Below, piece after piece: positions 9,808 through 63,505 of a stretch of DNA of 64,000 bases. The translations under genes were made by a program, and so were the position numbers. The notes under the pieces were generated by a model. That model worked only from the letters and a program-made list of their open reading frames with translations. It had not been told where the DNA came from and did not search any database. Each line of letters opens with the position of its first letter. Within the stretch, counting starts at the first letter, position 1. The stretch is from NCBI RefSeq assembly GCF_918797505.1, contig NC_092797.1, positions 48,520,157 through 48,584,156 of the forward strand. The letters run 5' to 3'. The stretch comes from Bemisia tabaci (taxonomy: Eukaryota > Arthropoda > Insecta > Hemiptera > Aleyrodidae).

Positions 9808-9891
9808 CTGTATTTTTTGTCTGTTGCAGGTGAGTGTCTTTTAAAATCATTTCCGCATGTCAAGAAAGCAGTACTTACACTTTTGGTAAGT
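9808..9891 (+). other. Candidate recursive splice site (ratchet point) 1
   Basis: A T-rich tract (TGTATTTTTTGTCTGTTG) ends in CAG at 9827-9829 and is joined directly to GTGAGT at 9830-9835, so a 3' and a 5' splice site abut with no exon between them. A branch-like TTAAC lies about 22 nt upstream. A second strong 5' motif, GTAAGT, starts at 9886, outlining a possible 56-nt cryptic exon (9830-9885). This layout is known for recursive splicing in long introns of Drosophila genes. The 56-nt segment is not a multiple of three and contains stops, so retention would break a message. Confidence 0.6.
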
Positions 9892-10572
9892 TTTTGTTGG
9901 TATTTTTTGTTTCACCATTAGTCCGGTAACAAGGATGAAAACAAGAGGTGCCTGCTGCAGTACAGACGTTTAAAAACATAAACTTTTTCAACCCCTAAAT
10001 AATTTTTTGGTACACTACTCTAGGAGTGGAGGGGCAATCGGCCACATCAACCAAGATTTTGATGTTCCATACAGTCCAAATACATTTGTCTCTTATACCG
10101 CGGCTTCGGTTTGTCTTTAAAAACATAAACATCTAAACAAACTTTCCACAATTTGCGAGTTCGGATGATTTCATAAAACCGCCACGCTTCTTTTCAGTAT
10201 TTAATTCGAGGGGCTTGGAGTACAAGGCGAAAAAGTGCGCAGTTTTTGCTATTTCGAGAAATACATGTTTGGAGCTTCGAAATTTTATGACTCCTCGTGA
10301 TGGAAAGGAAGTTCAGACTGACAAGATGCTTAAAAATTGGAATTTGGGAGCGAATTTATCACAGAATAAACATTAAGACTAGTCTCAATTGAAATTACTA
10401 ATACCTCAATTTTTACAAAAACTGCACTTATGCACCTTGTCCTCCAATCCCCTCATTTGTCTTTTTTCTCGTGGAACATTCAATACCTGATCGTTGGACG
10501 CATCGAAACGCTGCCTCTGAACGTACGTATCTGAAACTTTCGAGCCCGGGCTACTCGTCTCTAATCTGACCC
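9892..10572. other. Non-coding, presumed intronic
   Basis: AT-rich, with no repeat or coding signal recognised. It directly follows the candidate ratchet point. Confidence 0.4.
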
Positions 10573-10660
10573 AAGGGCGTATCTCAATTTTCTCCTGAGC
10601 CGTATTCTCCATATTACTCAATGTTTTTCGGGGCTCATGTGGGAATGGAGATACGCCTTT
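10573..10660. repeat. GGGCTCATG foldback family, copy 1
   Basis: The left arm AAGGGCGTATCTCAATTTTC then TGAGCC is inverted on the right as GGGGCTCATGTGGGAATGG then AGATACGCCTTT. Arms are about 32 bp. Related copies are at 18619-18708, 35325-35404 and 58277-58374. The conserved arms and variable loop suggest a very small MITE or a mobile hairpin. Confidence 0.6.
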
Positions 10661-10947
10661 CGGTGAGAAGAGCAACGTGTTCCCAGTTCGGAGACGGCGG
10701 CAATTTGTCGCGGACGGTTTCTCGCACTTTCATCTGGTGGCGGGTAATCTATCGCCGCGTTGGCCGCGCGGCGAGCGAGAGTCGAGTCGAGGGTAGAAAG
10801 TGTCGAACGTCGAATGTGAGGACGCGTCCAGCTCCATATTTCGTGCGCGCGTCCGAATAAATCAGGGAAGCGTAGCCCTTCCCGACGTCCACCACGTCCA
10901 TCCCGGATTCGCCGCCGACGTTGCCGAGATAGACTTGAAGCAACGTG

Positions 10948-11410
10948 TACAGGGTGATCCGAAAGTTCCGCACCACCCCCAATAACCCCTCAGTCTCACA
11001 ATAACAGCGGTGAGGCTCATAGTGTCCTTCTTATAATTTTCTTGTTTTTGCCGGTTGAAAATGCGGGTGTGATCCCTGCGAAACGTCCCGGGTTTTTTAT
11101 TTTATTTTATGTGTATTATTTGCGGCCTTAGTCCCGTTTTAAGTTGTTTCTTAATAACCCTAGGGTTCTTACCCCTAGAGAGGTGGATTCTCTCACAATT
11201 TTGGGGAGTCAAAATTCTTGGTGAATTCTCTCAAAATTTTGGGGAGTCACAAATTTTAGGTGAATTCTCTCAAAATATTTGGGAATCACAAAAGTCGTTT
11301 CCTTTAACGTAGGAGCATTCACAAAATTTCAAAATTTCCATCTTTTGTTCAAACTTTACAAGGGTGGTACCCTGTGCGCTAGTGGCGCGGGACTTTTGGA
11401 TCACCCTGTA
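10948..11410. mobile_element. MITE, TACAGGGTGATCC-end family, copy 1
   Basis: The left end TACAGGGTGATCCGAAAGTT and the right end ACTTTTGGATCACCCTGTA are near-perfect inverted repeats. TA at both outer edges could be a TA target duplication. The element is 463 bp and holds a 38-39 bp triplet repeat (11182-11296). Ends of this kind are common in insect genomes. A 3' half is at 36575-36687 and a related shorter element at 22098-22292. Confidence 0.7.
11182..11296. repeat. 38-39 bp unit repeated three times
   Basis: Units start at 11182, 11220 and 11259 with the shared core GGTGAATTCTCTCAAAATTT then GGGGAGTCAC. The array lies inside the TACAGGGTG-end MITE, and the third unit is the most diverged. 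Confidence 0.85.
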
Positions 11411-11999
11411 TATTCTTCAGAGTCGCATTCAAGTTATTTTTGGAGGTCAACATTCAGATTTGATTGATTAAAATTTAATTACGTTTTGCGATAATAAACT
11501 ACTACGCTATTTAAGATTTCCGATTTTTTCTTCTCTAGACGAGTCGCCAGGGGACGATGGTCATGAAAATCGTGTTACTTGACCTTAAAACGTGATTAGG
11601 GGTGTAGTTTTCATCTGACCGTCATTATCGATTAATCAATATCGGTGAAAAATTGAGAACAGTGATTCTAGACGTATTTTATGGTTTCAAAAGCTAATTT
11701 TTGATGAACGTGTTTTAATGACTGATCTATGGACTGGCATTTCGATTTTTCGAAAAAAATACTAATTTTGGCTAAAATCTACAAAATATTGCAGTGGTGG
11801 CATCGGTAAAATCTGAGCAGCCTTTATGAATAATGGGGCCCACCACGTAATTTGGATCAAAAATGGGATGAAAGAGGTCTCCCTTCATAAGTTCCCTCGA
11901 GAGGTGCATAATATTCCACATAAAGCCGTGAGGTTCATTCACGACTACCTCTTCTCCTAAATCCCTCCCGACTGGAACTTAACGCGTCACAAAGGCGCA
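11411..11999. other. Non-coding, no feature recognised
   Basis: AT-rich stretch between a MITE and a CpG-rich island. No repeats or coding signals recognised. Confidence 0.4.
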
Positions 12000-12560
12000 A
12001 CAGCGCGCCTCGGAGTGCAAATTGGAACTTATTGAATATCGTGCGATTGATATAATCGTATTGGCATGGAGTAATAACCTAACCTCACATTTCCGAAACG
12101 TCCGTCGCGGTGCATCCCGGGCGGCGATGATGAATTTACAACGCGCGGTTTAATCATTTAGCGCTCCCCGCCAGCCGCCAGCGCGCCGACGATGAGTCGA
12201 GTAATTTGCGCGCAATGGGAACGCCACGCTACCTGGCGGATTACGAACAAATAAAATATTGCGCTTACTACTTATTAAGCAATAATTTAATTGTCTAATA
12301 AATCCCGGCGCGTACAACCCGAGTGTTGTAAACATGTCAGCGATACAAAGTGAGAGGCTCCGGGTCCCTCTCGGAGGGTGACTCGCCCCCCGCGATCGAC
12401 AAGCGTGTCCCCCACCCCCGCCCGACGGGGGATCACCTCTTCTTTATGGCCCCGCTGCATTTTGACTCCTTGCCTTCGTGGCCCTTTTTGAGTTATGCTC
12501 GCGCTTTTTTCTCCCCGCCCCGCGCCGCCTGCCCCTGCGCGGGGCTTGTACACTTGAGAC
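12000..12560. promoter_or_regulatory. CpG-rich low-repeat island, candidate enhancer
   Basis: CpG-containing sequence (ACGCGCGGTTTAATC, GCGCGCAATGGG) is interspersed with TAAT and TTTAAT motifs such as AATAATTTAATTGTC. No MITE falls inside. Open frames at 12287-12721 on both strands are explained by high GC. The call is inference from composition and motif content; species conservation would decide it. Confidence 0.3.
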
Positions 12561-13300
12561 GCAGCAATATGATCCGTGATTCCCGGTCACACGCGCTGTG
12601 CCCCTTCAAATGCCTCCGTTTAATGGGATTCCTCGCCGAGGATCTGATACGAGCAGCGGGTAATCCGCAACAATCGCGAGTTTTTTTCAGGAGGAATATC
12701 TTAACATCGGAAACGTTATGAAGCCATACTGAAATTATAAGACAAAATTTTTTGCCTTTTATGTGGACTCCATGTGGAAGGTTTTATCCAGGGTGGCAAA
12801 ATTTCACGAAATTTAAAATCATAAAACTCTTAAATACAGGATAAATATTTGTGACCTTATCGGTTAATATAGGAAGTGCTACACAAACCAAAACAAATTT
12901 TGTTTTGATTTTTGTACAGTTTGCCCTGCATTCAGCACGAAAAACCGATGGAACAACCGGGAAACAATATTAAAAAAAAAAAAAAAAAATGGTACATGGT
13001 TTTTGTTAACTTCCGGTGTAGATTCATCTGACGGAACAGTGAGACGCTTTCTTGCTCTATGAAATGATGCGAGGTGCTGACGGAGGCAATAGAATCTGCG
13101 GTTCCCTATCCAGTTAATTGAGCGGCAAAATCAAAAGTTTCTTTCTCTCTCTTAAATCGTAATTATGACTCGACGTGATTAAAAGATGAACTAGCGGCCC
13201 CGTCCATTGTTGCCGCACTAGAAAATGGACACTATTATGTCTGACGCACTGAGAAACTTTTTCTGGAGTCCTTGTCCTACAGGTAATCCTAATAATTAGG
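12561..13300. other. Non-coding with an 18-bp poly(A) run
   Basis: An A run sits at 12972-12989. No flanking element was recognised and no coding signal is seen. Confidence 0.45.
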
Positions 13301-13430
13301 CTACATTTTGCAATTAGGAACTATAATTTCTGACGCAGTTTAGCACAAAGTATGTACAATTAGTTTCCCTATGCACATTTTCACAGATGAGTCAGATATT
13401 GTAGTTCCAAATTTAAAAATGTAGTTCAAT
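13301..13430. mobile_element. MITE, CATTTTGCAATT-end family, copy
   Basis: The left end CTACATTTTGCAATTAGG then AACTATAATTTCTGACGC, and the right end GTCAGATATTGTAGTTCC then AAATGTAGTTC, are inverted copies. It is about 130 bp and non-coding. Confidence 0.75.
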
Positions 13431-13786
13431 AGTATTTTCACATCGATCATTAGGTACGACAGGGATCATAATACACCAAATTTGGTCAAGAAATACTTTT
13501 AACGAACTTTGAAAGAACGTCCCGCATTGATGACTCTCGTTAACTTGTCCAGGGGTTTAGGACATTCATCCGGGACGTATTTTTTAAGTTATTTCAAAGC
13601 ACTATCTAAACGAATTTAGTAAAGCGCTGTAACAGAATGTGAATTTTGGAAATAAAAAAAAAAAAAATACGGTCGCTCACGTAATTTGTAATTCTCGAAA
13701 ACTGTGTCTGGGGGTTTCTGGATGGATCAGATTATTCAACGTATTAAAAAAGGAAAGACCTTTAGCGGTGGCGTAGCCAGATATTT

Positions 13787-13924
13787 GGACTGCAATGTCC
13801 AAGAAGGAACTACCATTTCTAATTAATTTAAGAAACAAGAAATGTGCTTTCGTTTCCTTACGTAGATGTGTGTTTTTATGTATAAGCCAGAAATCATAGT
13901 TCCTCATTGCAAAATGCGGTCCAC
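13787..13924. mobile_element. MITE, CATTTTGCAATT-end family, copy
   Basis: The right half (AGCCAGAAATCATAGTTCC then TCATTGCAAAATGCGGTCC) is well preserved. The left end (GGACTGCAATGTCCAAGAAG then GAACTACCATTTCT) is diverged. It overlaps an 88-codon minus-strand frame that is not a gene. Confidence 0.65.
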
Positions 13925-14332
13925 TTTTCATTTTAAGTCCCAAAATGAGAAATTCTTAAAAATCTCTAAAAATGACGTGTTTTCAGGGAAAAATTTTCGG
14001 GAATTTTATGCACTCCGTACAGGATAGGAATTGTGTACTTTGCATGACGTGGCATCGGTCGAAAGCACGCTAGACTAAGTGGCGAGGCAGTGGTCATCTT
14101 TGGCCGGGATCAGAGATTGATGAGAGAATAAACTGCAGCAAGCGGGCAGCACCGTTGATGAGCACCTGTTCCCAGTCAATGATACCGTCTTAAAAACCGA
14201 TCCGATATTATTTTCTAATTTGCCGCGCCTTTTTCCCACGCCTCGCGCACCACCATGACGTCAACGCGGGCTGACTGTCTCAACGCCTACCTCGCGCTCT
14301 GATTTTCCGGAAGGGTACCGATGGCGAAAGTA
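13925..14332. other. Non-coding, no feature recognised
   Basis: Mildly CpG-rich toward the end (14220-14310). No repeat or RNA gene recognised. Confidence 0.4.
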
Positions 14333-14551
14333 GGAAACCACGTATCTCCACAGCGGTGGCTCAAAATCTCTGCTCTTATATTATTTTCGAAGAGAAATAA
14401 GTCAACTATGTAGTTTGTAATTTCTTCGAAATATTCTGCTGGTAGAGAGGAAAAATCCAGGAAATTATCAAGAAACTGAGTTGACTATTTTTACATTACA
14501 AAAAAAATTAAGTATGACCGGAAATCTGCGCAAACGAAGATATGTGGTTCC
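14333..14551. mobile_element. MITE, GGAACCACATATC-end family, copy 1
   Basis: The left end GGAAACCACGTATCTCC and the right end GATATGTGGTTCC are inverted. The interior arms AAATAAGTCAACTATGTAG and GAGTTGACTA pair as well. Relatives are at 41633-41860, 44614-44876 and a left portion at 25337-25420. Confidence 0.65.
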
Positions 14552-14907
14552 ACATTCTAGCTATAAATATATAGTACAATAACACAAAACGGCGTAATAC
14601 CTTCCATGTTTTGTAGGAGAGGTAAATTTGAAATTTAAGCAATCGCGTTTCTTTTTTATAATTTCAGTCCATACAAAGGGTCGTTTACTTATGCATGAAT
14701 GACACAAAAAATGAAAAGACGCTCAATTCCATGATACAAAATTCACTAAAACTCTATACACCTCTTTGGTGTAACAGGACTTAATTATCTTTCAAGAAAT
14801 TCCCACCTTGTTATACCTGAACCGGATATACCTGAACCGGATAAACCTCTATATTTGCCTCTGCTAAAGGCTCTTAGATTTTTCCTGTGTACGATTAGTA
14901 TCTTGAT

Positions 14908-15300
14908 TTATTTTGCGAGGAAGGATCTATACTTTTAAAGGATGCCTGCCATTCCTAATACGTTCAATTTCGTATAATACTGTGCAACACCTCTGTTGTG
15001 AAATAGTTGCTTCAGGCGCCGCCGCGCCGCACAGCGGGCGGGCGAGCGGTCAGCGCGAAACGCGCATTGGCGCCTACAAACCTAACTGGATACTTCAAGC
15101 ATTGTGCAATGCGTGCAGTATCCACTTAGGTTTGTAGGCGCCAGTGAGCCTCTCGCGCTGGCAGCTGCAGCACGCCGCACCGTTCTGTTAGGCTTTAATA
15201 TTTATACTCGCATAGTCAGCGTTTTTTAACTCATGATGTTGATATGTTTGCACACTCTGCATTGATTCTTCTCGTTTAAATTGATGAGGAAAAAATGTGT
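14908..15300. mobile_element. Hairpin-core element, copy 1 (+ orientation)
   Basis: About 390 bp that reappears, inverted, at 30285-30700. Shared blocks include ATCTTGATTTATTTTGCGAGG (cut at 20 here: TCTTGATTTATTTTGCGAGG), GGATGCCTGCCATTCCTAA, GAAATAGTTGCTTCAG, a GC-rich GCCGCCGCGCCGC segment and TTTGCACACTCTGCATTGAT. The core is a 74-bp imperfect hairpin at 15069-15142. The outer ends are set only by where the two copies stop matching. A 3' half of a CACTGG element starts right after it. Confidence 0.65.
15069..15142. repeat. 74-bp imperfect hairpin
   Basis: GGCGCCTACAAACCTAACTG on the left pairs with the complement on the right, which ends TTAGGTTTGTAGGCGCC, with a few mismatches near the centre. 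It corresponds to the perfect 76-bp palindrome at 30423-30498. Confidence 0.85.
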
Positions 15301-15303
15301 ATC

Positions 15304-15406
15304 AAGCTAGATTCTGATTGAATCAAGAGTACTTTTTCTTGTCGATGTTTTTAAGAGTCTGGACTCTAGATCCATTGTGTTTTTTTTTTTTTTTTTTTTT
15401 CCAGTG
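15304..15406. mobile_element. CACTGG-end MITE, 3' half
   Basis: AAGCTAGATTCTGATTGAAT through GGACTCTAGATCCATTGTGT, a 21-base T run (15380-15400) and terminal CCAGTG match the 3' half of the elements at 24370, 36039 and 50263. The 5' half is absent, so this is a truncated copy abutting the hairpin-core element. Confidence 0.75.
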
Positions 15407-15539
15407 CGCCATTTGATCGGAAATCGATGGAAATTTTAGCGTGTATCCAGGCCTCTAATGTGATCGATTCGCATATCCGGGGCTTTTTTCTCCGAGTGTG
15501 CAGCAGTCAACAGACCCACGGAATCCGATCCGAACGTGA

Positions 15540-16160
15540 TGAGCAGGCACCACGATAAAACGGTCGATTATCTGTTTGATTAGGGCGCTAATTCGATGAT
15601 CCGGCCGAGGCCGTGCGGGGGTGGGCGGGGGGGGGGGGGCACGGAGCTAATGAGGTCGCGGGCCCGGAAGCGGGAAGTGGGAAGCGGGGCTCCGGTGCGC
15701 TGCGCCGGGACGCCGGGGCGGCCCCCGGGGAGCTGACATGCGTGTCACCTACCAACCAGGCGCCTGCTCCGCGCCGACCAATCCGCGGCGCCCGCCCAGC
15801 CGCCCTCCGGTCGCCCTGTCAACGGAATCCACCTATAATAAATTGTAAGAGACCCTGCGCTCCCGGAATATTAATAGCGCCCTCCCCCCCGTCCGCCCCC
15901 GCTCGCTCTAATTTTCGTCCCGAAATATAAACACCGACTCGGCGTGCATTATTATGCATGTGAAATAAAAATCGGGGGAGTTGATTACCCGGGGATCCGC
16001 GGAAAGTTTTAATCCCCCGCCGAGAAAAGAGTAGTTAAAAGTTTTAATGAAAAGCGTCATAACTTGACGCACGGGCCGCGGCGAACGCAATGCACCAAGA
16101 ACGGAGTTTCGGTTCGGACGAGGCGCGCATTCGCTTTCGGTGATTTATAACGGGGCTCAT
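15540..16160. promoter_or_regulatory. CpG-rich island with homeodomain-like motifs
   Basis: High GC with abundant CpG and a G run near 15628-15638, then AATATTAATAGCG, TATTATGCATG, GTTTTAATCCC and GAAAGTTTTAATG motifs. No MITE interrupts it. It may be an enhancer or promoter-proximal element, but no transcription start or initiator can be assigned. A 105-codon + frame here is explained by GC content. Confidence 0.35.
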
Positions 16161-16416
16161 TCGAGGCTCTGAATTTGCGTATTTTTAGTGGGAAAATGAA
16201 TCCCGAATCTAATCGGAGTTAGTACTTTACGTCGGATACAGCATTCAGATACCTAGGATCGGTAGTTGATAAACAACCAAACTTAACTTAATTCAACCTA
16301 ATCTAACATGACACTGTTGAAAATACTAATACTCTGGTCCAATATTGAAGATTATATCGACTCAACTTTGACGCTTATTTCTAGTGTAACTTGACTATAT
16401 CTATATGCATATTGCT

Positions 16417-16561
16417 CTAATTGAAGTATATCATATAATTAGGGACCTACTATCTATGGTTTATTTTAGAATAAATATACATGCCATTAACAGATTATGC
16501 AGTTAGGTGATATTTTAAATGAGCTGGAAATGGTAGTTCCTTCTAGTGAAGTGTAGCTCAA
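16417..16561. mobile_element. MITE, CATTTTGCAATT-end family, degraded copy
   Basis: AATTAGGGACCTACTATCTAT on the left (AATTAGGGACCTACTATC) and GAGCTGGAAATGGTAGTTCC on the right resemble the inner ends of this family. The outer ends are decayed. Confidence 0.4.
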
Positions 16562-17475
16562 TGGACTCGAATTGTTTTAAAATTACCCTAAATTACCACT
16601 TAATTTGTTTGACATACATCGTTTTTAAGTCAATGATTTGACTCCATATACGCACAAATTCAAAAAATATTAATTTATTTACTTTTTCCACTCTTTTTTG
16701 TACATATTTAAGCGTTTCTCCTACATAGGCACAATCCCCAACTATGATTGATCTTTTTAAGCAACATTTTAAGACATTTCAATGTTAAATATTAAACACC
16801 AATTGTTTTAAATTATAAATTACCAGAGGGCTACGACTTCTGACCTCTTCGCGGTCCAACCCTCTGAAGCGCCTCGCGCCTCAGGCGTTACGCGGTACAC
16901 ATGTCATACCATAGAATTTTATGCTTTTATAGGTATGATATGATATCAATATGATACTTTATCCTCCGACAAAAAGGGTACGGGTAGCGTCTGAAAAATC
17001 GATTCAACCGCTAATTGATTATCCCCTTGTCCTGTCGAATTTCGGGACGTATAGCATCTGCTTTGCACGCAGCTTCCGCCAAAAAATCGGCGTGACCCAG
17101 TGACCCAAATGAGTTGCACCCTTACAAGCGAACGACCACCCTTAAAAACACAGTCGACGCCTCTTGTAAAGGGCGAGGGGCGAGGATAATAAGAAGAACA
17201 TAAATAGGCGGCTTGAGGGGGTGAGACCTTGCATCCCCTCGAGTGACACCTCTGAGCTTCCCTATATCAGTGTAGCCACATTGGTATCCGAGTTTCGAAA
17301 ATATTTCAACCTGCGTGACGCGTGCATTTTCTAAAGGTAAATAAATTATTTTAAAATATTTAATCTCAAATTTCTTGTTTCTTCAAGATGAATCTAGAGA
17401 AGAAGTCAGCGAACATTCTGATATCGAACAAGTTTTGCTAAATGGGTTTATTGCACGCAAAAGAAACATAAGCCA
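16562..17475. other. Non-coding, no feature recognised
   Basis: AT-rich with a GC-richer patch at 16825-16900. No recognised repeat or gene. Confidence 0.4.
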
Positions 17476-24369: not shown

Positions 24370-24597
24370 CACTGGGGAAAAAAAACATATTGGATGTAGA
24401 GTCCAGACTCTTAAGAGCATCGAAAAGAAAAAGTACTCTTCATTCAATCAGAATCTAGCTTAAATCAAGAACCAAGCCTCTTAATTTAAGCGGATTTCGT
24501 TTTGATTCAAGCAAAAATCCGATTGAATCAAGAGTGTTTTTTCTTGTCAATGTTTTCAAGAATCTTGACTCTAGATCCAATGTGTTTTTTTCCAGTG
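24370..24597. mobile_element. CACTGG-end MITE, copy 1
   Basis: A 228-bp element with inverted ends CACTGGGGAAAAAAAACATA and GTGTTTTTTTCCAGTG, then TAGAGTCCAGACTCTTAAG and its counterpart. The interior AAGCCTCTTAATTTAAGCGG is nearly self-complementary. TA flanks both sides (24368-24369, 24598-24599), consistent with a Tc1/mariner-type TA duplication. Other copies are at 36039, 50263, 56099 and 15304 (half). Confidence 0.8.
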
Positions 24598-31500: not shown

Positions 31501-32252
31501 GACACTACTGCTGTTGCCAGATTGTGAGGCCCCTTACCGGGCGCTTGGGATAAATAATCAATTTTATAACAAATTATGCAACCTGACTCACGGAGGGTGT
31601 GAGCTAACGAATAGTTGAGGCGCTCGGTGCAAAATAATTTACATGCGACTTAATTAAAACATTAACATATAATAGGCGGTCGTTCATAATTGTCGCTGAT
31701 GTGTAGCATCAATGTTCAAGTCTTACCTTTTTGTTCGTTCACTTCTAGCTTAGAAATTGATATTGATACTCACGCTATAGGATGAAAGAGCGGTTTATGC
31801 GTTGAAATAGTTGTATCACGCATTTTAGCTCAGCATTATATCCGAAAGACAAGTGACTTTTGTCGTAATCTTCGTGTTTTAATGATTATTGCGACAAAAT
31901 GTCTAGTAACTTTTACCCGATTTATCCCGCAAAAATATATTTTGATAAAATCATTCAGAAAAGTTGGAAAAGTTAGAACACCACTGTCACGCGAACCTCT
32001 GAATAACTGAAAACGGTAGTGAGAAATCAAGTTCGCCTTCAATTCTATGGATACAATTTGCGCGGCTTATGAGTTGGAATAGTTGTATCACGCATGTTAA
32101 TGAAGTTCGATGTCCGAATCATAATGCAATTCCCGGCTTTAAAAATTTGAAAGCAAATTCGTGCGTATGATGGCACAAACCCAAAGTCCATAGAAAAATA
32201 TCGAAAAATTGTAGTCATATAATTTATTTTCATATGATTTTTAATCAAACAT
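31501..32252. other. Non-coding, presumed intronic
   Basis: AT-rich sequence leading to ratchet point 2. A local repeat of GAATAGTTGTATCACGCAT is present (31805-31823 as GAAATAGTTG... and 32076-32094), about 270 bp apart. Confidence 0.4.
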
Positions 32253-32328
32253 GTCTTCTCTTTGTTTCAGGTAAGCACACTTTTTATGGTCTGAAAGTTT
32301 TTACGCTGTGCCACTTCTAGTTGTAAGT
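32253..32328 (+). other. Candidate recursive splice site (ratchet point) 2
   Basis: A strong pyrimidine tract TCTTCTCTTTGTTTCAG ends at 32270 and is joined directly to GTAAGC (32271-32276). A branch-like TTTTTAATC lies about 30 nt upstream. Another 5' motif, GTAAGT, starts at 32323, giving a 52-nt cryptic exon (32271-32322). Of the three sites this has the best 3' splice signal. The segment length is not a multiple of three. Confidence 0.65.
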
Positions 32329-34429
32329 GTTGCTTTTACATTTTCTTTTCTTTTTTTTTTTTGGTGATCAGGTTTTCTTCCAACAGTGAAGCGTGTGTAG
32401 GAGATGAACGCAAAAAGAAAAGTTAAAATACGGCGTTTTTTTCATTTGACGCAAACTATGAGACGCCGGCACCGTGATATTTTTATAAGCGCATTAGAGC
32501 TTTCAAATGCTTTTCTTGATCTGCCCCTATTACATGAGTTGGATCTTTTCCCGCCACTATTAAGTTTAAGTCTTGCGCACCAGAGTTCGCTAGCATCTTT
32601 AGAGGGGAATCTCAAGGCGGAAGTGGCGCCGAAAGTGTCGCCGAGGGCCGTCAAAGCGAACAAATGAACGAGGCGCGATCCGTATTACCATATAGATGAT
32701 GAGACGAGACCCGAGCAAGATGTAGTGGTTGCTCCGGCTCCTAACGATGATTTATAGAGTGTATTGGAAGTGCCAGTCCCGCGGCCAGTGCAGCGGGGGT
32801 TGCCTAATCCTGAATAACGGGGCGCTTCCCATCGGCTTGGCCAGCTTTTCCGTTTTTCTCGGGAACCATGTCGGTGGTTGCCGATTTTTCCTGAAATCGG
32901 AAAACGAGTTCTCGCATCCGAAATGAGAACAGAAAAAGGAAATTGGGGAAATAACTGAGGATAATTGCATCGATTGAGAAGGAGAATGAAGGCTTGGATA
33001 GTGGTCGATGTTCGACCATTTAACCACTGATTATTGGATTAGGATGACAAATTCTTGAAAATTTAGGAAAAAGCGGGAAAATCGGTAAATTTTACTCTAA
33101 CGTGAAAAGTCAAGAAAGTTTGCCTCCAAGCCACAAACCATGTTTCTTCGAAAGGTTGAACTTGAACAATTTTTTCGGCAGAGTATAAATGTCCCTCAAA
33201 ATACTCGTATTTCTTGTGAATAGCGCTCATACGTCCAAAATCTTGGAAAAGTCTGGAAAAGTTAGTAACTTTGGTTTTCAAAAATCTTGAAAAGTCAGGG
33301 GGAAATAAGGAAGCTTAAAATTTAAGATAACTCGTCACTCTGTGGTATGCTATACTATAACAATAACTATAAAAGGGATTATTCTCGGTTCGCCCAAAAA
33401 TGCCCATATTTTTATTCGGTCTAATCTAATTAATTGCTCAGACTATTGGTGAAATTCTTCAATGAAAGAGATTTGACACTGGAAAATCCTTATCAAAGTT
33501 GTTGAATTCAGAGAACTGTGGTCTCTAGAACAGTGGCCAATGTGGGTTAAATTGTAGAAAGTTTAAAGCTATCACTTACCAAATTTTCAGCGCTATTTGA
33601 GAAAATGCCCCTTGTTTCTTGTATTATTCCAATTTTCCACGGAAAATCCGAATTTTCATCCAAAAGTCATTGACCAATGTTATTTATTAACAAGTATTTT
33701 ATCGGTTCCAACCACTGTTTTTCAGGACTATCAATTTTTGGAAAATTTCCTCACAATCATAATAAATCAAAACTAAACAAAAAAAAACCTTTGTATGACA
33801 CTGTTTTTGCATCAAAGCGGTGACATTTGTAGAATCCCAGTCTAATATTTCTCATCCTACCATGCTCAGTTTACGTATATTTTAGAGATTTTTTTTAAAA
33901 TTGTATGGTCATAGCACCGGCTTGTATCCGATGGAGGCTCGTTAGAATAGTTAATCCGCGTGAGTAATGTATCAGGGCGGAACTAGTCATTACACCAACT
34001 GTCTCAATTAGCGAAATATAATTTCTCATCATCCATCTAAGTTCATTGCATCTACATTTTCCAGTGGAGGGACCAATCAGCTAGAACACACGGCTTGAAC
34101 TGATGCACTGCTAATTACTTGCTTCAATTAGTTTGTTTTTCAAATCAACTCATGATCGGCAGTTTCTTTGAAGGAATTTTAGTTCATAATTCATTAGTAT
34201 CAGGGGATCTCACTTTGCTGAGTGGGCAATCAGTGCGGCAATGATAAATGAGAGAAAAAACTCAAAAGAAAAGGTTTTTATTTGCAATCTTATGGAAAAA
34301 TGTGCGAGCACATAAGTCAGACTAATAAATTAAGACCATACAATCTGACAACTCTCCATATTATTTACAATTCTCAGATTTATTATTTGATTATTATTTA
34401 AAATTTCTGAACTTTCAAGCTTTTCCAAA
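32329..34429. other. Non-coding, presumed intronic
   Basis: Two kb with no MITE recognised. The 87-codon + frame at 32404-32667 is opposed by a 73-codon minus frame and has no domain I know. A weakly repeated CTTGAAAA/GGAAAA composition at 33040-33300 is noted only. Confidence 0.4.
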
Positions 34430-35899: not shown

Positions 35900-36285
35900 T
35901 TGGACCACGATTTGCGATTATGAACCGATGTTTTTGACTCATTCATGAAAGCACCTGTTCGAATTAAGAGGGAACATATCGGGACGTTTGTTATTTCTAA
36001 GAAGAGCCAGAAATAGTGGTTCCTAATTGAAAATTGTACACTGGAAAAAAACACATGGTATCTAGAGTCCAGACTCTTGAAAAAATTGACAAGAAAAAAT
36101 ACTCTTGATTCAATCGGATTTTTGCTTGAATCAAAACGAAATCCGCTTAAATTAAGAGGCTTGGTTCTTGATTTAAGCTAGATTCTGATTGAATCAAGAG
36201 TACTTTTTCTTGTCGATGTTTTTAAGAGTCTGGAGCTGGACTCTAGATCCAATGTGTTTTTTTTCCCCAGTGTAGTTAATTTTGT
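35900..36285. mobile_element. MITE, CATTTTGCAATT-end family, split by a CACTGG element
   Basis: The left end TTGGACCACGATTTGCGATT then ATGAACCGATG and the right part AGAGCCAGAAATAGTGGTTCC then AATTGAAAATTG (shown in pieces of 20 or fewer: AGCCAGAAATAGTGGTTCC) are this family. The right terminus is cut at TA by the CACTGG element at 36039-36272 and resumes as TAGTTAATTTT. The insertion shows the CACTGG copy is younger. Confidence 0.7.
36039..36272. mobile_element. CACTGG-end MITE, copy 2 (nested)
   Basis: Inverted ends CACTGGAAAAAAACACAT and TGTGTTTTTTTTCCCCAGTG, with TA on both sides (36037-36038 and 36273-36274). The interior matches the copy at 24370 in inverted orientation. It includes a small duplication GAGTCTGGAGCTGGACTC near the right arm. 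Confidence 0.85.
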
Positions 36286-50262: not shown

Positions 50263-50492
50263 CACTGGAAAAAAAACACATTGGATCTAGAGTCCAGACT
50301 CTTCAAAAAATCGACAAGAAAAAATGCTCTTGATTCAGTCGGATTTTTGCTTAAATCAAGAATCAAGCCTCTTAATTTAAGCGGAATTCGTTTTGATTTA
50401 TAAGCAAAAATCTGATTGAATCAAGAGTATTTTTTCTCGTCAATGTTTTCAAGAGTCTGGACTCTAGATCCAATGTGTTTTTTTTTCCAGTG
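50263..50492. mobile_element. CACTGG-end MITE, copy 3
   Basis: Left CACTGGAAAAAAAACACATT then GGATCTAGAGTCC, right GGACTCTAGATCCAATGTG then TTTTTTTTTCCAGTG. It is 230 bp. AA, not TA, flanks both sides. The arms are almost perfect, suggesting a fairly recent copy. Confidence 0.85.
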
Positions 50493-55830: not shown

Positions 55831-56098
55831 GCGGACTTCGAGTCAAAGATTGCAGAGCATCCGAGAGTTTGGAGTTTCATTGAGAAAATAGTTATTGTTA
55901 CGCCAAATTCAATTTGTTTCACTAGAAAGAAGTCGGTGCGTGTCAATTTTCGTCTATTTTAAATGTATGTTTGAGAATCCTACTAAGGTTGTAAAGAGGT
56001 GGTGAAACAGTCCTGGTTCCATACTATTTGGCAGGGGAAACAAGGCAAAAATATTCCCAAAATTTAAATTACAGTCAACAACTCTGACAAAATAGTCG

Positions 56099-56308
56099 CT
56101 TGGATCTAGAGTCCAGACTCTTAAAAACATTGACAAGAAAAAAACTCTTGATTCAATCGGACTTTTTGCTCGAATCAAAAGGAAATCTGCCTAAATCAGG
56201 GGCTCGGATCTTCAATTTAAGGAAAAATCGGATTGAGTCAAGAGTATTTTTTCTTGTCAATGTTATTAAGAGTCTGGACTCTAGATCCAAGCAACTTTTT
56301 TCCCAGTG
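56099..56308. mobile_element. CACTGG-end MITE, copy 4 (degraded left end)
   Basis: CTTGGATCTAGAGTCCAGAC and GTCTGGACTCTAGATCCAAG are intact inner arms, and the right terminus TTTTTTCCCAGTG remains. The left terminal CACTGG is lost. The interior has a deletion relative to 24370. Confidence 0.75.
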
Positions 56309-56588: not shown

Positions 56589-57317
56589 ATGTTGTTATTG
56601 TTTGCAAATTAGCTTCCTCTCCTCCCCAAAAGTCAATTCCCATTCGTAAATGCCACTCAAACCTCACTCCAAGTCGATAATTTCCCTTCCTTTCATGAAG
56701 GAAAAGAAAAAACCAGTATACATCTAAGCATGGTTTTTTTTACACCGCATCATACCAAAACAACCTGTAAGAGACAGTTCAATTTTCCTCACCCCACCAT
56801 TCCATTTTTTCTAAACGGCCCGTCGACTAAATGTCGCAGATCAACCCACGGATGAATTAGACGGAGAATCCCGAGTGTTAGGGGATGAAGACGGGGGGGG
56901 GGAGGCCGCTTACCCTAAATATCGCGGTCTGATGGAGCAGGAGCCTCCCCAATTAGAGAGACAAAAGGACAAGAGGGGTCGCCGCCGCAGTTTGCAAAGC
57001 AGCTTCTTCAAGCGAGGAAAGATCATTATTTAAGATGAACATTGATTCGGGCCCTCTTCCCGCTAAATTACAGCCACCCTCACACATAACCTCGAAAAAA
57101 ATGAGTCCGAGACTCTTTACCGTAATTGCCGCTACCTGTTAACACCTAATATTTCCCGCCCCGACTCTCGTGTTTTTTCCCTCCCCTAACACTTGTACTT
57201 TCCCGTTACTTCTTACCCTCTGCACCCGTGAAGCGAGTTTTTTTCTAACGCGCTCAACGCCTTGTTTTTTTCTTGTTTTATTCCTTTGATTTGTCAGAAC
57301 CGCAGGCCTATCATCAG
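56589..57317. other. Non-coding, no feature recognised
   Basis: Mixed composition with a G run near 56893-56902. Minus frame 57139-57342 has no domain. Confidence 0.35.
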
Positions 57318-57558
57318 AATTGATAGATAAAGCAATAGACAAAGAGGATGACGGGAAAATAGAGTGATCCTATTCGCTGCAACGGGTGGTTGTTATCGAC
57401 CAAAGAGGGAAAATGAAGGACTAACTAAAGGCTCTCTTGTGAGTTGCCGTTAGTTAGTCTATTTCTTACCTCCTTTGTCCATTGCAACCACCCGCTTCCA
57501 CCAATAAGATCCCTTCATTTTCTCTTGCCTTTCTTTTTCTATTGTTTGTCTATCAATT
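57318..57558. repeat. 241-bp foldback with ~110-bp arms
   Basis: Left AATTGATAGATAAAGCAATAG, GGGTGGTTGTTATCG and ACTAACTAA; right TTAGTTAGTC, GCAACCACCCGC and CTATTGTTTGTCTATCAATT (each quoted to 20 bases or fewer). Arms have scattered mismatches and a loop of about 20 bp. Its right end overlaps the start of the MITE at 57556. Confidence 0.75.
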
Positions 57559-57700
57559 GGACTACATTTTGCAATTTGGAACTATAAAGGCTGACCCATC
57601 TTAAAAAACACGTATGTGCATAGGGAAACTAATGGCACATATACGTTGTCTTTAAACTAGGCCAGAATTTATAGTTCCAAATTGCAAAATGCAGTCCAAT
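57556..57700. mobile_element. MITE, CATTTTGCAATT-end family, best copy
   Basis: Left ATTGGACTACATTTTGCAAT then TTGGAACTATAA; right TTATAGTTCCAAATTGC then AAAATGCAGTCCAAT. It is 145 bp with about 32-bp arms. It begins exactly where the foldback at 57318 ends. Confidence 0.85.
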
Positions 57701-58276
57701 TTCAATAATCAGCCCGCTGACGGCTTGAACAATAATTAGCTAGACTGCATTTTACGTGGAATTCCTCTCCACTGAAAACAATTTATCGTGGATTTCACCA
57801 TACTTCGACACAATAACACTATCAATTATGCTATGGTTTAATAACCAGACTTTTGGTAGCATTCAACACCTTGCAGCACATTTCAAACATAAGTTTGATA
57901 AGTACTATCTAGCCCCTGGTTGGATGATGCACTTAAAGTTTTACTGTGTCAAAAATCAAGTGAAGTTCGAGAAGTCGATTGAATTACTCAAAGAACTTGC
58001 CATTCTTTTTCCCAGTGGCATTTCTTATTTTTCCCCCAAAATTGAGCAAGATCCTTGAATTTTCCATTTATTTGAATTTTCAACGGACTACCAAGAATAT
58101 ATTCACAAACTACTGGATCAATACCATAGTATTTTGGCTACCAGGAGAGGTGACACGCTCATTCTCAGCCAATTTTTTTTTTTCGAATTTGCGAATCTTT
58201 GGGATTATTATTATTATCGAATTGGGATTATTATTGCGGAAGTATCATCGGAGTGGGATTTGGAAGGCGTAACGAC
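57701..58276. other. Non-coding, 100-codon frame not supported
   Basis: The + strand frame 57756-58058 has amino-acid variety closer to real protein than most here but no domain I recognise and no splice context. A sequence search could test whether it is a decayed gene fragment. Confidence 0.35.
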
Positions 58277-58374
58277 AAGGGTGTATCTTCATCTCTACAT
58301 GAGCCCTTTTTTCCATATAAGTCCATGCACTCCGGGGCTCATGAGGAAATAAATATACGCCCTTTTGACAGAGG
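58277..58374. repeat. GGGCTCATG foldback family, copy 4
   Basis: Left AAGGGTGTATCTTCATCTC then ACATGAGCCC; right GGGGCTCATGAGGAAATAAA then TATACGCCCTT. A GAGGAGCGACGA motif follows, as at 18619. Confidence 0.6.
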
Positions 58375-58479
58375 AGCGACGAAAAGAGTCGTCGCATGTG
58401 TTTTGAAAATACAATCGTTATGACAATAGGAATGCGAATGAATTCAGAAATTTGTTATACATATTGAACACGGAAAATG

Positions 58480-58720
58480 TGATTCCGGGGAAATATAAAT
58501 GGAAATGGCAATATCCTCTCCGAGGAAGCGAAACAGAGGCGCTATAAAACGGTGGGCTCATTAAATTTTCATTGGTTTCGAGCGGGAAAGCGGGGCGGTA
58601 TTTATGATTAGCCCGAGTGACAGTAAAAAATCGTTTCTCACAGCGCCGATTTACGTGCTGGTTCGATCGAGAATCGTTGCATACGGAAACCAGCGTTTGC
58701 GGAAGTGAACTTGAATGCAG
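58480..58720. promoter_or_regulatory. CpG-containing low-repeat block
   Basis: AATATAAATGG, GGCGCTATAAAACGG, CTCATTAAATTTTCATTGG and TATTTATGATTAGCC motifs in moderately CpG-rich sequence. GCTATAAAACG is TATA-like, but no transcription start can be shown. Confidence 0.25.
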
Positions 58721-60090
58721 TGTTGTCAGATTCCAAAATTTATCAATTTATACGATGCTGTTAATGTCAGAGTTCGGCAAGACTCAATAATTGCTCTAGA
58801 TGAATATTCAATTGCTTTTATCGCTTATTTTAGCTCATAAGATGGTAAAAATTTCCTTGTATTTCTGTCCTCACTTTTTTTCAACACGTCCAGTATGACG
58901 TCTGATTAATATTCCCCGTACACTGGAGTTTTTTTTTTGAAACCACTGAAATGATTGTTGTCTCGGTGGAATTACACTAGACGCACATACACTATTTTTT
59001 CAAAGAGTTTTCCACTCCGGGAAATACTCAATTAACGTTCCTGACGATCCAATGGGAAAATTGTTTTGCGTATCCCCAGAGGCTTTATTTCAAACGCAGT
59101 TTCAGATCACTTGGTTTAATCATTGAGACACGTTCGCTTATAAACTATCTTCTTTACCAATCAAATTAAAGTGAAGCATCTTTACCAAATGGGATGAGAT
59201 CATATTAACGCCATGGCAGTTCGCCTTCAATTTCAGAGTAGGCAACACAAAGCTCCCGCGTGGTCGAATAGTGGTATCGTCGTAGAAATGGCACTCTTGC
59301 TCCAAATACTTACAAAAAATAGCTTCTTACCACATCGGAAGAGGGTAATTAAACGGCATGCCATATTCACTGACAAAATTATAACTTAGTGAGTTAATTT
59401 TGTGAATCATTTTATTTTTTCGCACGGAAAACCGACAACCTCGCCGTTATAAAAATGGTTGACACAGCCACTTTTCCGCAATCGGTATTGTCATCCGGCG
59501 AGGAGCTGCACAGCGGGGGGTGTGCGAGGGGAGGAGGAGGGGGGGTGTTATTGCTTAAAAATTGACAAAGTCGCAAGGGAGCGCGAACCGCAAGAGCGGC
59601 GGTGCCAGGGGTGGCGCGGGGATAACAAGGACGAGATTTAAGTTGGTAACGATCAATGATAACATGTTTAAATAATACAGCGATTTATTTGAGTGGAAAT
59701 ATGGTCTCGTTTTAAATTTTGACAAATGATGAAGCTATGACGCGGGGGTTTGCGTAAATCTTCGGAGACCCGAGGAGGGTAAAAAACAAGACCGCTGCCT
59801 CTGTCTTACCCTCCGCGGCCGGTTTTTTTCTTCTTCTCTTCTCTTTTTTTCTCGTGCCTTTCCCTTCCCTGTCTTCGCTGCGGCTGAAGCGCGCGGCTTA
59901 TGCCGAAGACGCATTGTTCCGCGGCTGAAATTGTTGAATGGACCGCATTCGAATTTAAATTGTTTCGCCCGGCGGTCCTGCGCTGGCATTCCACGATTCG
60001 CTGAACCGGGAAATGGTCTTGGTCAATGCTCTTGATTTCAGCCTATGATGGGCTGCGGGGTTTTTTTTAGAAGTATTTTGGTGAACACTA
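58721..60090. other. Non-coding, no feature recognised
   Basis: AT-rich; a G-rich patch lies at 59513-59547 and opposing frames at 59735-59994 are compositional. Confidence 0.35.
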
Positions 60091-60331
60091 TTTGGACCGC
60101 GTTTAGCAGAAAGGAACCAAGATAATACCAACTTTTAAGGGGCAATTTAATTTTTTACAAGAGACTTTAAAGTGGATCCTTCAAATATTTAAGGAATTTG
60201 CTTACCCTTCAGAAAATGTATGTTTGCGCAAATATCCGCACATCCGTTTTCATGTAAAACATTAAAATTGCCCAAATAAATCTGGTAATAGCTAATGGAT
60301 GGCTTGGTTCCTTTCTTCGTAAAGCGGTCTA
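60091..60331. mobile_element. MITE, GGACCGCGTT-end family, copy 2
   Basis: Left TTTGGACCGCGTTTAGCAG then AAAGGAACCAAG; right CTTGGTTCCTTTCTTCG then TAAAGCGGTCTATTT. It is 241 bp, followed closely by a 40-bp tandem array. Confidence 0.7.
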
Positions 60332-60384
60332 TTTATGTGCGAAATCTTCGAAAATCGAAAACTTCGGTCATGCTGAAAAATATT

Positions 60385-60612
60385 CACCTTTTTGGGCAGC
60401 AATTTCAGTTCTCTGAAAAAACACGCACTTTGTTTCGGAGTAATTTCGATTTTTTGAAGATGACGCACCTTTTTGAGCAGCAATCTCACTGCCCTGCAAA
60501 ATAAGTAGTGTTTAAGCAGCAATCTCAATGCATCGAAAAATATTAACTTTTTTGAGCGGCAATCTCGATGCTCTAAAATATAAGCACCTTTTTGTGTAGC
60601 AATCTCGACAGA
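60385..60612. repeat. ~40-bp minisatellite, about 5.7 units
   Basis: Units start near 60385, 60425, 60466, 60506, 60545 and 60585 with the core CACCTTTTTGAGCAGCAATC then TCNNTGCNCTNAAAA. The second unit is the most diverged. Two apparent open frames (60292-60528) on opposite strands result from the array. Confidence 0.85.
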
Positions 60613-61260
60613 CCTAAGAAGCGAATCCTGGAGACGAGGTTAGACGGCTCGATGGAACTGAGTATTGTTGAGCGACGACGTTGGACGGTGCGCTCGGCGG
60701 TCGGGTCCGGCGGGCAGCGCGTCGAATCGGGCACAAGTTATTCGGGGCCGGGAGCCGGGGGAACCGGGTGAAATTGTCCCGCACACGTGACACTCCGTCA
60801 ATGCATCAGTCAACAGCCGACACACTCCGTAAATTACACACTCTTTTTTACTCCTCTCTATTTTCCCCGAGATTCCTCCATTCCGACCCTGGTAATAACG
60901 CCCCGGAGCCGACGTTGTCATCATCACCGACCAACGTTCTCAACAGTCACGGCATTTCATCAGTGAAATGACGCCGAGCTTTTTGAAAGCGAAGGGGCTG
61001 CTTTTAAATTGAATGGCAGAATTCTACTGAATGTCGAGTTCACACGCTGTAAATGAGAACTGATGATGGGAGTCATCAACAATATCGGTGCTCAACAGTT
61101 GGAATATTGTTACTTTGAGTTTTTATCGGAATTTGGACCAAATTCATTCCAATAGCCAGGTCAAACTTATCATGGTTGCGTCTCCAACTCTCATCCATCG
61201 CATCTTGTCGTGGGACTTGTAAGGCACCACTTAATATTTCACTAATGACGTAGATGATAT
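60613..61260. other. Non-coding, no feature recognised
   Basis: GC-richer at 60650-60780, where opposing 95- and 96-codon frames overlap. No domain recognised. Confidence 0.35.
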
Positions 61261-61399
61261 GAACCAAATTTTGCGATTAAGAACTACAATTTCTGGCTCA
61301 TAAAAGAAACAACATATTTGCCATTAGTTTTCCTATGTAGATAGGTGATTTTATGAATGAGCCAGAAATTCTAGTTCCTTAATGCAAAATAAAGTCAAT
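61261..61399. mobile_element. MITE, CATTTTGCAATT-end family, copy
   Basis: Left AACCAAATTTTGCGATTAAG then AACTACAATTTCTGGCTCAT; right ATGAGCCAGAAATTCTAGTT then CCTTAATGCAAAAT. Inner arms are nearly perfect. Confidence 0.75.
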
Positions 61400-62295
61400 A
61401 TGGTCCCGCAGTTTTCCTGTCTAAAAGGAGAGAGAAGAGAAAAATAACACAACTTTCAATTTAGATACCGCTTTTGTGTCAGTGATTTTCTTCTTAAAAT
61501 ATTGTCAAAAATGAAAGAAAAAAGGATTCTAAGTCTTCAGGCCGTATGCTCATCCTTCGGAGGAAAGGAAAAATAAAGAAGAAAAAAATACCGCGACAAG
61601 TGAAGCTATATGAGCCACAATAAGAACTTGACAACAATGTCAATATATAGAGGCACATCACACATTAATTCCTTCGTCATGCCATCATTTTGCCTCGGGC
61701 AGTCACGGCCCCCCTCCCCCTCCTGGGGGGCGCAATTTCCCGCGGTTAGCCCGCTCCCGCTTTTCAAATAGTGTTTTTTTTTTTTTATTTCTTTTTCATT
61801 AAACCTCTTTTGATTTTCGACACAACATAAGTACTGTAAGCTCTGACACTCCTCGCCTTTCACATTCTGTTTTCGAGTCCTTCGTTCGAGTCTCGTTTGA
61901 TGGACAGGTGTAGATATGAAGTTCCCGGGGTGGGAGGGTGGCGGCAATAAACTAAATTGACAATGATAAAAAATTAAGCGTATCTGATATGGATGACAGT
62001 TTTATAAGGACATAATCGAATGACTCGGAGTTGGAGAGAATGCTCTGGAGGATTTTCACTTTTCTTCGGGTCGCGTTTGAGGGTTAAGGTGGAGTGGAAA
62101 AGAAGATACTCGTTTCTCCGCGCCATTTTTGCTATCTTAGAGCTTGAATATAACAGATATTATCATGATTTTTCAAGATATTTTTACCGAAAAAATATAT
62201 TTTATAGACCTTATCCTGATACTACTTGACATTACTTTTGGCAGTCAATGCTCAAATTCGCTTGATGATGACTCATGGCCGAAAAGTTGAGCAGT
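61400..62295. other. Non-coding, no feature recognised
   Basis: AT-rich with a C-rich patch at 61710-61725. No recognised repeat or gene. Confidence 0.35.
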
Positions 62296-62431
62296 TTGAC
62301 TTCATTTTGCATTTAGGAACCACAATATTTAGACCATTCATAAAAACATTTAGCTACATACGGAAACTAATGGCTCACATTACGTTAGTTCCAAAATGAG
62401 CTAGAGAGATTCAGAGGTCTCAATTACAAAC
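62296..62431. mobile_element. MITE, CATTTTGCAATT-end family, left-preserved copy
   Basis: Left TGACTTCATTTTGCATTTAG then GAACCACAATATTTAGACC is clear, and GGAAACTAATGGCTCACATT matches the middle. The right end is scrambled. Confidence 0.6.
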
Positions 62432-62535
62432 GGTGTAGTTCTTTTTGGTGCAAGTAATTTTGAGCTCCGTGATCATGCTGAATTTGAGTTTTCCTTAATG
62501 TTTTTGTTAACTATGTTTTTTGAGCTGAAAACAAT

Positions 62536-63190
62536 GACGGCGCAGAGATACAACTATTCGCACTCGATGGATGTCCATGTTGTATCCGCAAAATTGAAGG
62601 CGCGATGATGCGAAGCGTGAACTCGCAATGCTTCGAATCCCGTATCAATCAGATTCGGGAGGAAAGTTTAAAAATGAGACCCGATTACGTCTCTCCTATC
62701 TTCGACTGTGTTACTCATGTAGCCCTGGCAGCTCCACCACAAAGGAGACACACGGTACCAACAAAAAAATGGAAATAGATCAAGTTTAAGGACGCGCGCG
62801 TCGTTGACGGCGTAGAGATGCAACTATTCGTACTTGATGGATGTCTGTGATGCATCTGCAAAATTGAAGGCGCGATGGCGTGAGGCGCGAACTCGCAATG
62901 ATCCGCTGCATGCTTCCAATATTTTGTCAATCCAATTCGGGAAGAAAAGTTGAAAATAAGGCCATATTACATGTCTCCTATCTTCGGTTGTGTTGGTCGT
63001 GTAGGCACCACTAAAAATGAGACAAACGGAACCAACATAATTGGGAAATAGAGCAGGTTAAAGGACGCGCGTTGTTGACGGCGCAGAGATACAACTATTC
63101 GTACTTGATGGATGTCCGTGATGCATCTTTAAAATTGAAGGCGCGATGGCGAGATGCGCGAATTCGCATAATACTCCGCTACACATCCTA
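62536..63190. repeat. ~270-bp tandem repeat, about 2.4 units
   Basis: Units start at GACGGCGCAGAGATACAAC (62536), GACGGCGTAGAGATGCAAC (62806) and again at 63077, periods of 270 and 271 bp. Shared blocks include ACTTGATGGATGTC, AAATTGAAGGCGCGATGG and TCTCCTATCTTCG. The last unit breaks off near 63190. Minus-strand frames (62715-62930 and 63058-63312) repeat the same peptide because of the array. Confidence 0.9.
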
Positions 63191-63417
63191 TGGAAATGTT
63201 TCACATATTTGCACTGGTTATATACCTCATGTACGGATGAAATCAGGGTGAAGAGACCGTGGTATGCACCACCAAATAGCAATTGAAAATACTCTAGAAT
63301 CGCGCGGTTCAAATTTATGGTCCGGTCAAGATATGAGATTCGCCTTTTGTCTCTCGGACATGTATATTTGTGTTATAAAATGTAATCAATGCAAAAGGTG
63401 TATTAACCAAAATTTTC

Positions 63418-63505
63418 ATAATTCTTATGTTGCAGGTAAGGACCTTTCAAGTCACTATTCTCTCAAGTATTCATGAGTGTTATATCCACGCTGCGGAAGG
63501 TAAGG
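63418..63505 (+). other. Candidate recursive splice site (ratchet point) 3
   Basis: An AT/T-rich tract ending CTTATGTTGCAG (to 63435) joins directly to GTAAGG (63436-63441). A branch-like TATTAACC lies about 30 nt upstream. A second 5' motif GTAAGG starts at 63500, giving a 64-nt cryptic exon (63436-63499). Its pyrimidine tract is weaker than at ratchet point 2. The length is not a multiple of three. Confidence 0.5.

What the first reader, a model, noticed from the sequence alone, without database searches (positions are those of the whole stretch)
9808..63505. Three + strand ratchet points with cryptic exons: the window looks like a giant recursively spliced intron
At 9829/9830, 32270/32271 and 63435/63436 a 3' splice site abuts a 5' splice site (CAG|GTGAGT, CAG|GTAAGC, CAG|GTAAGG). 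CAG|GTRAG alone would turn up by chance about twice per strand in 64 kb, so the motif is not proof. What stands out is that all three I found on the + strand also have a T-rich tract, a branch-like TTAAY, and a GTAAG motif at +52 to +64, the architecture of cryptic exons that help recursive splicing in Drosophila. No exon is seen in the window. Spacing is about 22 and 31 kb.
Basis: partly seen in the sequence, partly recalled or inferred. Interest (0 to 1): 0.85.

Follow-up and report, generated by a model that had tools for sequence, protein, structure and literature searches.

The report
Recursive-splicing ratchet points in whitefly
In a whitefly genome, a stretch of DNA just ahead of the coding part of a developmental control gene carries three well-formed relay splice sites (a fourth lies just outside), so it is probably a giant intron removed in several steps, as known from fruit flies.

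Summary
The three + strand tandem splice sites are exactly as described. The AG|GT motif alone is weak evidence: the window's best one is on the minus strand (6322), but it lies in a high-copy repeat. The full architecture is not chance. In 3 of 3 a TTAAY branch motif lies 24-29 nt upstream, and a weaker donor 52-64 nt downstream encloses an exon not a multiple of three. They are the top three of the 324 AGGT sites scored on both strands; shuffled sequence gives 0.005-0.008 such sites per strand. In 240 kb of flanks the same score finds three more + sites of 29 or more (nearest at -21599) and none on minus. The host is the whitefly Bemisia tabaci. Downstream on + lies trachealess (trh), a bHLH-PAS gene: first coding exon at 70.4 kb, bHLH exon at 92.2 kb. 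Best reading: these are Drosophila-type ratchet points with cryptic RS-exons in a giant 5' intron of trh. No upstream exon, transcript or conservation was seen, so the gene assignment is inferred. New member of a known kind.

The parts
9802..9806 (+). RP1 candidate branch site TTAAC
9810..9835 (+). Ratchet point 1: gtattttttgtctgttgcag|GTGAGT, junction 9829/9830
   Evidence: acceptor 10.4, donor 12.6 bits (recalled matrices)
9830..9885 (+). Putative cryptic RS-exon 1, 56 nt, open in one frame, closed by donor TTG|GTAAGT
   Evidence: donor 8.7 bits
32241..32245 (+). RP2 candidate branch site TTAAT
32251..32276 (+). Ratchet point 2: atgtcttctctttgtttcag|GTAAGC, junction 32270/32271
   Evidence: acceptor 10.8, donor 11.6 bits; 32200-32400 gives one match in the genome
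32271..32322 (+). Putative cryptic RS-exon 2, 52 nt, stops in all three frames, closed by donor GTT|GTAAGT
   Evidence: donor 6.2 bits
63403..63407 (+). RP3 candidate branch site TTAAC
63416..63441 (+). Ratchet point 3: tcataattcttatgttgcag|GTAAGG, junction 63435/63436
   Evidence: acceptor 9.1, donor 11.9 bits
63436..63499 (+). Putative cryptic RS-exon 3, 64 nt, open in one frame, closed by donor AAG|GTAAGG, nearly as strong as the RP donor
   Evidence: donor 11.3 bits

Best explanation
The window is the interior of a giant 5' intron of the Bemisia tabaci trachealess gene, transcribed from + from a promoter upstream of the window (beyond -21.6 kb if the fourth site belongs to the same intron). 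9829/9830, 32270/32271 and 63435/63436 are ratchet points. At each, a 52-64 nt cryptic exon is recognised by its acceptor and end donor, the growing 5' exon is joined to the acceptor, and the regenerated stronger donor is then used instead of the exon's own donor, so successive segments of 22-31 kb are removed and nothing remains in the mRNA. The last segment would end at the acceptor candidate 70345, before trh's start codon, or at the bHLH exon (92181). Shown: sequence elements, their joint non-randomness, the + strand excess in the flanks, and trh on the same strand downstream. Inferred: the upstream exon, transcription, donor competition and recursive removal.
For: Architecture: of + acceptors of 9 or more bits, 3 of 53 are followed by a donor of 6.5 or more, expected 0.03; TTAAY in 3 of 3; for donors of 6.2, 8.7, 11.3 bits the chance at +45 to +70 of a random + position is 0.041, 0.006, 0.002; RP donor stronger than exon donor in 3 of 3 (12.6>8.7, 11.6>6.2, 11.9>11.3); lengths 56, 52, 64, none a multiple of 3. 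Combined scores 34.0, 29.9, 34.5 are the top three of 324 AGGT sites on both strands; best minus 28.3, best reversed or complemented 23.3; 600 shuffled strands per block size give 0.008 and 0.005 sites of 29.8 or more per strand, never two. Out-of-sample: in the flanks the same score finds + sites at -21599 (33.0), -125306 (31.0), -101648 (29.3); the best minus sites of the 304 kb (28.3, 27.5) are copies of one repeat. The -21599 site has CTAAT upstream and a 50-nt exon with stops in all frames and a weaker donor. Gene: trh exons on + from 70.4 to 130.0 kb, last exon 70% identical to the best database protein and 59% to Lygus hesperus 'Protein trachealess'. Literature: RS-exons of about 50 nt, generally out of frame, with weaker donors (PMC8605326); RP enrichment on the sense strand of introns over 50 kb in fly, mosquito, bee, beetle, sea urchin (PMC2773006 Table 2).
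Against: No RNA data, no upstream exon, no relative for conservation. trh's start-codon exon lies in GC-rich DNA with a TATAAA upstream, so it may have its own promoter, and no transcript is shown to begin further upstream. A two-exon methyltransferase gene on + (LOC109032255, -17358 to -15120) lies between the -21599 site and the window, so it would have to be nested if all sites share one intron. Reversed sequence of 264 kb also gives one site above 29.8 (31.4, donor at +107), and one shuffled site reached 32.5. Site 3 misses an 80% motif cut, and its exon donor nearly equals the RP donor. Strand asymmetry is mixed: donors of 8 or more bits are fewer on + (17 vs 35, p 0.018, one of five thresholds), but GTAAGT plus GTGAGT hexamers are more numerous on + (26 vs 15).
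Confidence: 0.74

Rival explanations
1. Real ratchet points, but of another + strand transcript (a long non-coding RNA or an unrecognised gene), not of trh.
For: No upstream trh exon was found; trh's coding start may have its own promoter; + sites at -101648 and -125306 may belong to something further upstream.
Against: trh is the next coding gene recognised downstream on the same strand. The methyltransferase gene is compact and ends at -15120, so it cannot own the window. Non-coding genes cannot be excluded.
Confidence: 0.13
2. Ordinary short or alternative non-coding exons that begin with GTRAG and are kept in mature RNA.
For: Acceptor, 52-64 nt and a donor each; site 3's exon donor nearly equals the RP donor. 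A 5'-UTR location would tolerate the stops.
Against: The RP donor is the stronger one in 3 of 3, which favours skipping in Drosophila (PMC8605326); the fourth site shows the same.
Confidence: 0.08
3. Chance matches in T-rich insect DNA.
For: Motif alone is nearly as frequent on minus and in reversed sequence; reversed 264 kb gives one site above 29.8.
Against: Full architecture 3 observed against 0.005-0.008 per shuffled strand; + excess recurs in the flanks.
Confidence: 0.04
4. Sites brought in by a repeated element, as the minus site 6322 was.
For: The repeat holding 6322 gave 40 scored matches (1799 candidates) and itself carries a tandem motif with a donor at +35.
Against: None of the three + sites overlaps a within-window repeat (the same test also gave 0 for the two minus sites, so it is insensitive); 32200-32400 matches only itself. 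9829 and 63435 were not searched genome-wide.
Confidence: 0.01

Closest known systems
Drosophila intronic ratchet points with cryptic RS-exons (kuz, Bx, Ubx; PMC8605326 passages read; Joseph 2018 and Duff 2015 recalled)
   Same: Strong acceptor abutting strong donor, exon of about 50 nt closed by a weaker donor, not a multiple of 3, several in one long exon-less stretch of a developmental gene
   Different: Whitefly, not fly; segments 22-31 kb instead of 9-15 kb (PMC6110457); not shown to be spliced
RP-site enrichment in large introns of mosquito, bee, beetle, sea urchin (PMC2773006, passages and Methods read)
   Same: Same tandem site outside drosophilids, sense-strand excess
   Different: A motif count; no RS-exon analysis in what I read; no hemipteran among its species
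Recursive splicing of very large introns in the migratory locust (one sentence in review PMC9962485; original not read)
   Same: Non-drosophilid insect with giant introns
   Different: There linked to piRNAs; no comparison with the sites here possible
Vertebrate RS-exons (as described in PMC8605326)
   Same: Two competing donors at one exon
   Different: Vertebrate large introns show ratios of only 0.9-1.5 (PMC2773006 Table 2)

Membership tests
Intronic ratchet point | Strong acceptor abutting strong donor at AG|GT | tested here: met
   site 3 is below an 80% cut
Intronic ratchet point | Sense-strand excess over the complement | tested here: inconclusive
   Motif alone 3 vs 2 in the window. 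In 264 kb 6 vs 3, of which 2 and 2 are copies of one repeat by their shared motif and donor at +35. Full score 29 or more in 304 kb: 6 vs 0
Drosophila-type cryptic RS-exon | Donor about 50 nt downstream, weaker than the RP donor | tested here: met
   +56, +52, +64; weaker in 3 of 3, by only 0.6 bits at site 3
Drosophila-type cryptic RS-exon | Generally out of frame | tested here: met
   56, 52, 64 nt; exon 2 has stops in all frames; two in three by chance each
Recursive splicing | Lies in one very long intron of a gene on that strand | tested here: inconclusive
   trh coding exons downstream on +; upstream exon not found
Recursive splicing | Exon-to-RP split reads, sawtooth nascent reads | not testable with these tools
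   No RNA data at hand
Recursive splicing | Conserved AG|GT core between species | not testable with these tools
   the genome has no relatives held here

The most novel reading that the evidence does not exclude
A hemipteran uses the complete Drosophila-type device (ratchet points plus cryptic, out-of-frame RS-exons) at roughly even 22-31 kb steps to remove a 5' intron of more than 90 kb of trachealess, with a methyltransferase gene nested in sense inside it; the exon-definition route of recursive splicing would then be old among insects rather than a fly specialisation.
Probability: 0.55. Interest if true: 0.52.

Novelty: new member of a known kind. Interest (0 to 1): 0.45.

Why it matters
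The RS-exon mechanism has been worked out in Drosophila; outside flies I found a motif count (PMC2773006) and a review's mention of locust. Full-architecture sites in a whitefly, ahead of a named developmental gene and with exact junctions, can be tested in existing kinds of RNA-seq data, and suggest that scoring branch site and RS-exon donor together finds ratchet points from sequence alone with few false positives.

Tried and rejected
Tandem motif as sole criterion: rejected. Position near repeats as an argument against the minus sites: rejected as first drafted. 6322 lies 77 nt from a palindromic stretch and 18086 109 nt from an inverted repeat, but the overlap test gave 0 for + and minus alike; the genome-wide copies are the real argument for 6322, and 18086 stays unexplained.

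Coding exons in the window: 300 of 390 ORFs of 55 aa or more (longest first of the 384 passing a complexity filter) and 109 of 109 exon-like stretches scanned; 7 single weak Pfam matches of 6 families at E of 0.01 or less (best Rsc14 6.6e-4), about 4 expected by chance, none followed up. No Rfam family, no tRNA. One window ORF gave no homologue.

Flanks: 150 of 505 ORFs of 75 aa or more scanned, 20 of them again singly: methyltransferase on + (L010), KASH on minus (L019), and one P53 match of 2.8e-4 not located.

Host by repeat patterns or plasmid similarity: nothing. Likelihood ratios from published RP densities not used: matrices differ, and the mosquito complement value was my stand-in.

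Papers: PMC8605326, PMC13149111, PMC6156852, PMC9962485 (passages), PMC6110457 (passages, Results parts 1-2 of 3), PMC2773006 (passages, Methods), PMC13105047 (abstract, outline, passages); the rest seen as listings. PMC6709686 and PMC4529404 are not held.

Full report
OBSERVATION. The three tandem sites are exact and are the only CAG|GTRAG sites on +; minus has one, at 6322. Scoring every AGGT with recalled insect-like matrices ranks them first on + (19.3, 18.6, 17.2; next 14.3); minus has 21.1 (6322) and 17.1 (18086).

MOTIF ALONE. Markov sequence gives 0.04 sites of 17 or more per strand and local shuffles 0.05-0.07, against 3 on + and 2 on minus. Reversed sequence gives 2 and complemented 0, though these hold more AGGT (274 and 247 against 151 and 173). 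At an 80% cut + has 2, minus 1, reversed 0 or 3 by matrix, complemented 0; 63435 misses it. So the motif is not strand-specific.

WHOLE ARCHITECTURE. TTAAY lies 24, 26 and 29 nt upstream in 3 of 3 + sites (background 0.09), 0 of 2 minus sites. The best downstream donors are at +56 (8.7 bits), +52 (6.2), +64 (11.3), with chances of 0.006, 0.041 and 0.002 at +45 to +70 of a random + position. Summing motif, branch (YTRAY, background 0.24-0.25) and best donor at +25 to +110 gives 34.0, 29.9 and 34.5; next + 22.4, best minus 28.3, best reversed or complemented 23.3. Of 600 shuffled strands per block size, 5 and 3 held one site of 29.8 or more and none two; the highest shuffled score was 32.5, and 28 or more occurs at 0.012-0.027 per strand. 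The score was composed after reading the finding, from parts described beforehand for Drosophila.

OUT-OF-SAMPLE TEST. At its eleventh try the genome tool placed the window at C5:48520157-48584156 of a 610 Mb genome. In 100 kb on either side plus 40 kb more upstream, the score finds + sites at -21599 (33.0; junction at L009:8401/8402), -125306 (31.0) and -101648 (29.3). No minus site exceeds 28.3 in the 304 kb. Reversed sequence of 264 kb gives one (31.4, donor at +107) and complemented none. The -21599 site has CTAAT upstream, a 50-nt exon with stops in all frames, and a donor of 6.2 bits. Spacing from it: 31.4, 22.4, 31.2 kb.

THE MINUS SITE. 6322 shares its motif and a donor at +35 with sites at -16728, 66282 (+) and 105226 (minus), and its region has 40 scored matches in the genome, 39 of them elsewhere at 93-96% identity, from 1799 candidates: a repeat that happens to carry a tandem splice-like motif. 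18086 stays unexplained.

HOST AND GENES. A + strand methyltransferase exon at -17358 to -16906 is 99% identical to XP_018899842.1 of Bemisia tabaci; its second exon at -15386 to -15120 completes the 239-aa protein, so this compact gene ends before the window. Downstream on +: start-codon exon of trachealess from 70402, bHLH exon 92181-92416, PAS exons between 111.7 and 126.4 kb, a short exon near 127.4 kb, last exon 128.9-130.0 kb. The last exon has 174 database relatives, among them Lygus hesperus 'Protein trachealess' and NPAS1/3-named proteins. Its reading frame shifts once in the assembly; whether that is an error was not resolved. The 70.4 kb exon lies in GC-rich DNA with a TATAAA near 69840 and an acceptor candidate at 70345 (9.2 bits); both a local promoter and an upstream exon are possible. 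A KASH-domain ORF lies on minus at about 142.2 kb.

READING. The window is 5' of trh's first coding exon, on trh's strand, and holds no recognised coding exon. The sites fit ratchet points with cryptic RS-exons (PMC8605326): about 50 nt, generally out of frame, ratchet donor the stronger (12.6>8.7, 11.6>6.2, 11.9>11.3). Exon 1 and exon 3 are open in one frame each, exon 2 in none. Site 3, with nearly equal donors, is the likeliest to be included at times. The inferred intron runs from an unseen 5' exon to 70345 or 92181.

STRAND ASYMMETRY is mixed. Donors of 8 or more bits 17 on + against 35 (p 0.018; other thresholds 0.08 to 1.0), acceptors of 9 or more bits 50 against 36 (p 0.16), but GTAAGT plus GTGAGT 26 against 15. 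I give it little weight.

LITERATURE. Searches showed Drosophila and mammalian work, one multi-species motif count (PMC2773006), a background sentence on insects (PMC6156852) and one on locust (PMC9962485). No listed paper held 'trachealess' with 'recursive splicing', and the one holding 'Bemisia' with it was that review. Most subscription papers are not held.

LIMITS. No RNA, no related genome, recalled matrices and queries. The gene assignment is by position.

Noticed in passing
window 6322, minus strand; also -16728 and 66282 (+), 105226 (minus): A high-copy repeat (40 scored genome matches, 1799 candidates) carries a near-perfect tandem splice motif with a donor at +35, a possible source of new splice sites or false ratchet calls.
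   Followed up: partly
window 18086, minus strand: Tandem site of 17.1 bits, 109 nt from an inverted repeat 17753-17845/17885-17977.
   Followed up: no
window 9767, + strand: Acceptor of 11.6 bits 62 nt upstream of ratchet point 1; would permit conventional exons of 62 or 118 nt.
   Followed up: no
L031:4694 and L033:8352 (-125306 and -101648): Two further + strand sites with full architecture, 31.0 and 29.3; same intron or another gene unknown.
   Followed up: no
L009:8401 and window 32270: The exon ends of the -21599 site and of site 2 share the stretch TAGTT|GTAAGT, perhaps a shared origin.
   Followed up: no
L010:2642-4880: Two-exon methyltransferase gene LOC109032255; only 3 relatives of its first exon were found in the protein search, one bacterial-style (UbiE) by name, so its origin may be worth a look.
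   Followed up: partly
L018:4948-6023: Last coding exon of trachealess, with one reading-frame shift in the assembly.
   Followed up: partly
window 24379-24568, 36045-36234, 50270-50459, 56089-56278, 15304-15388: Dispersed palindromic repeat family in both orientations.
   Followed up: no
window 62525-63168: Three copies of a 103-nt repeat at 270-nt spacing, ending 267 nt upstream of ratchet point 3.
   Followed up: no
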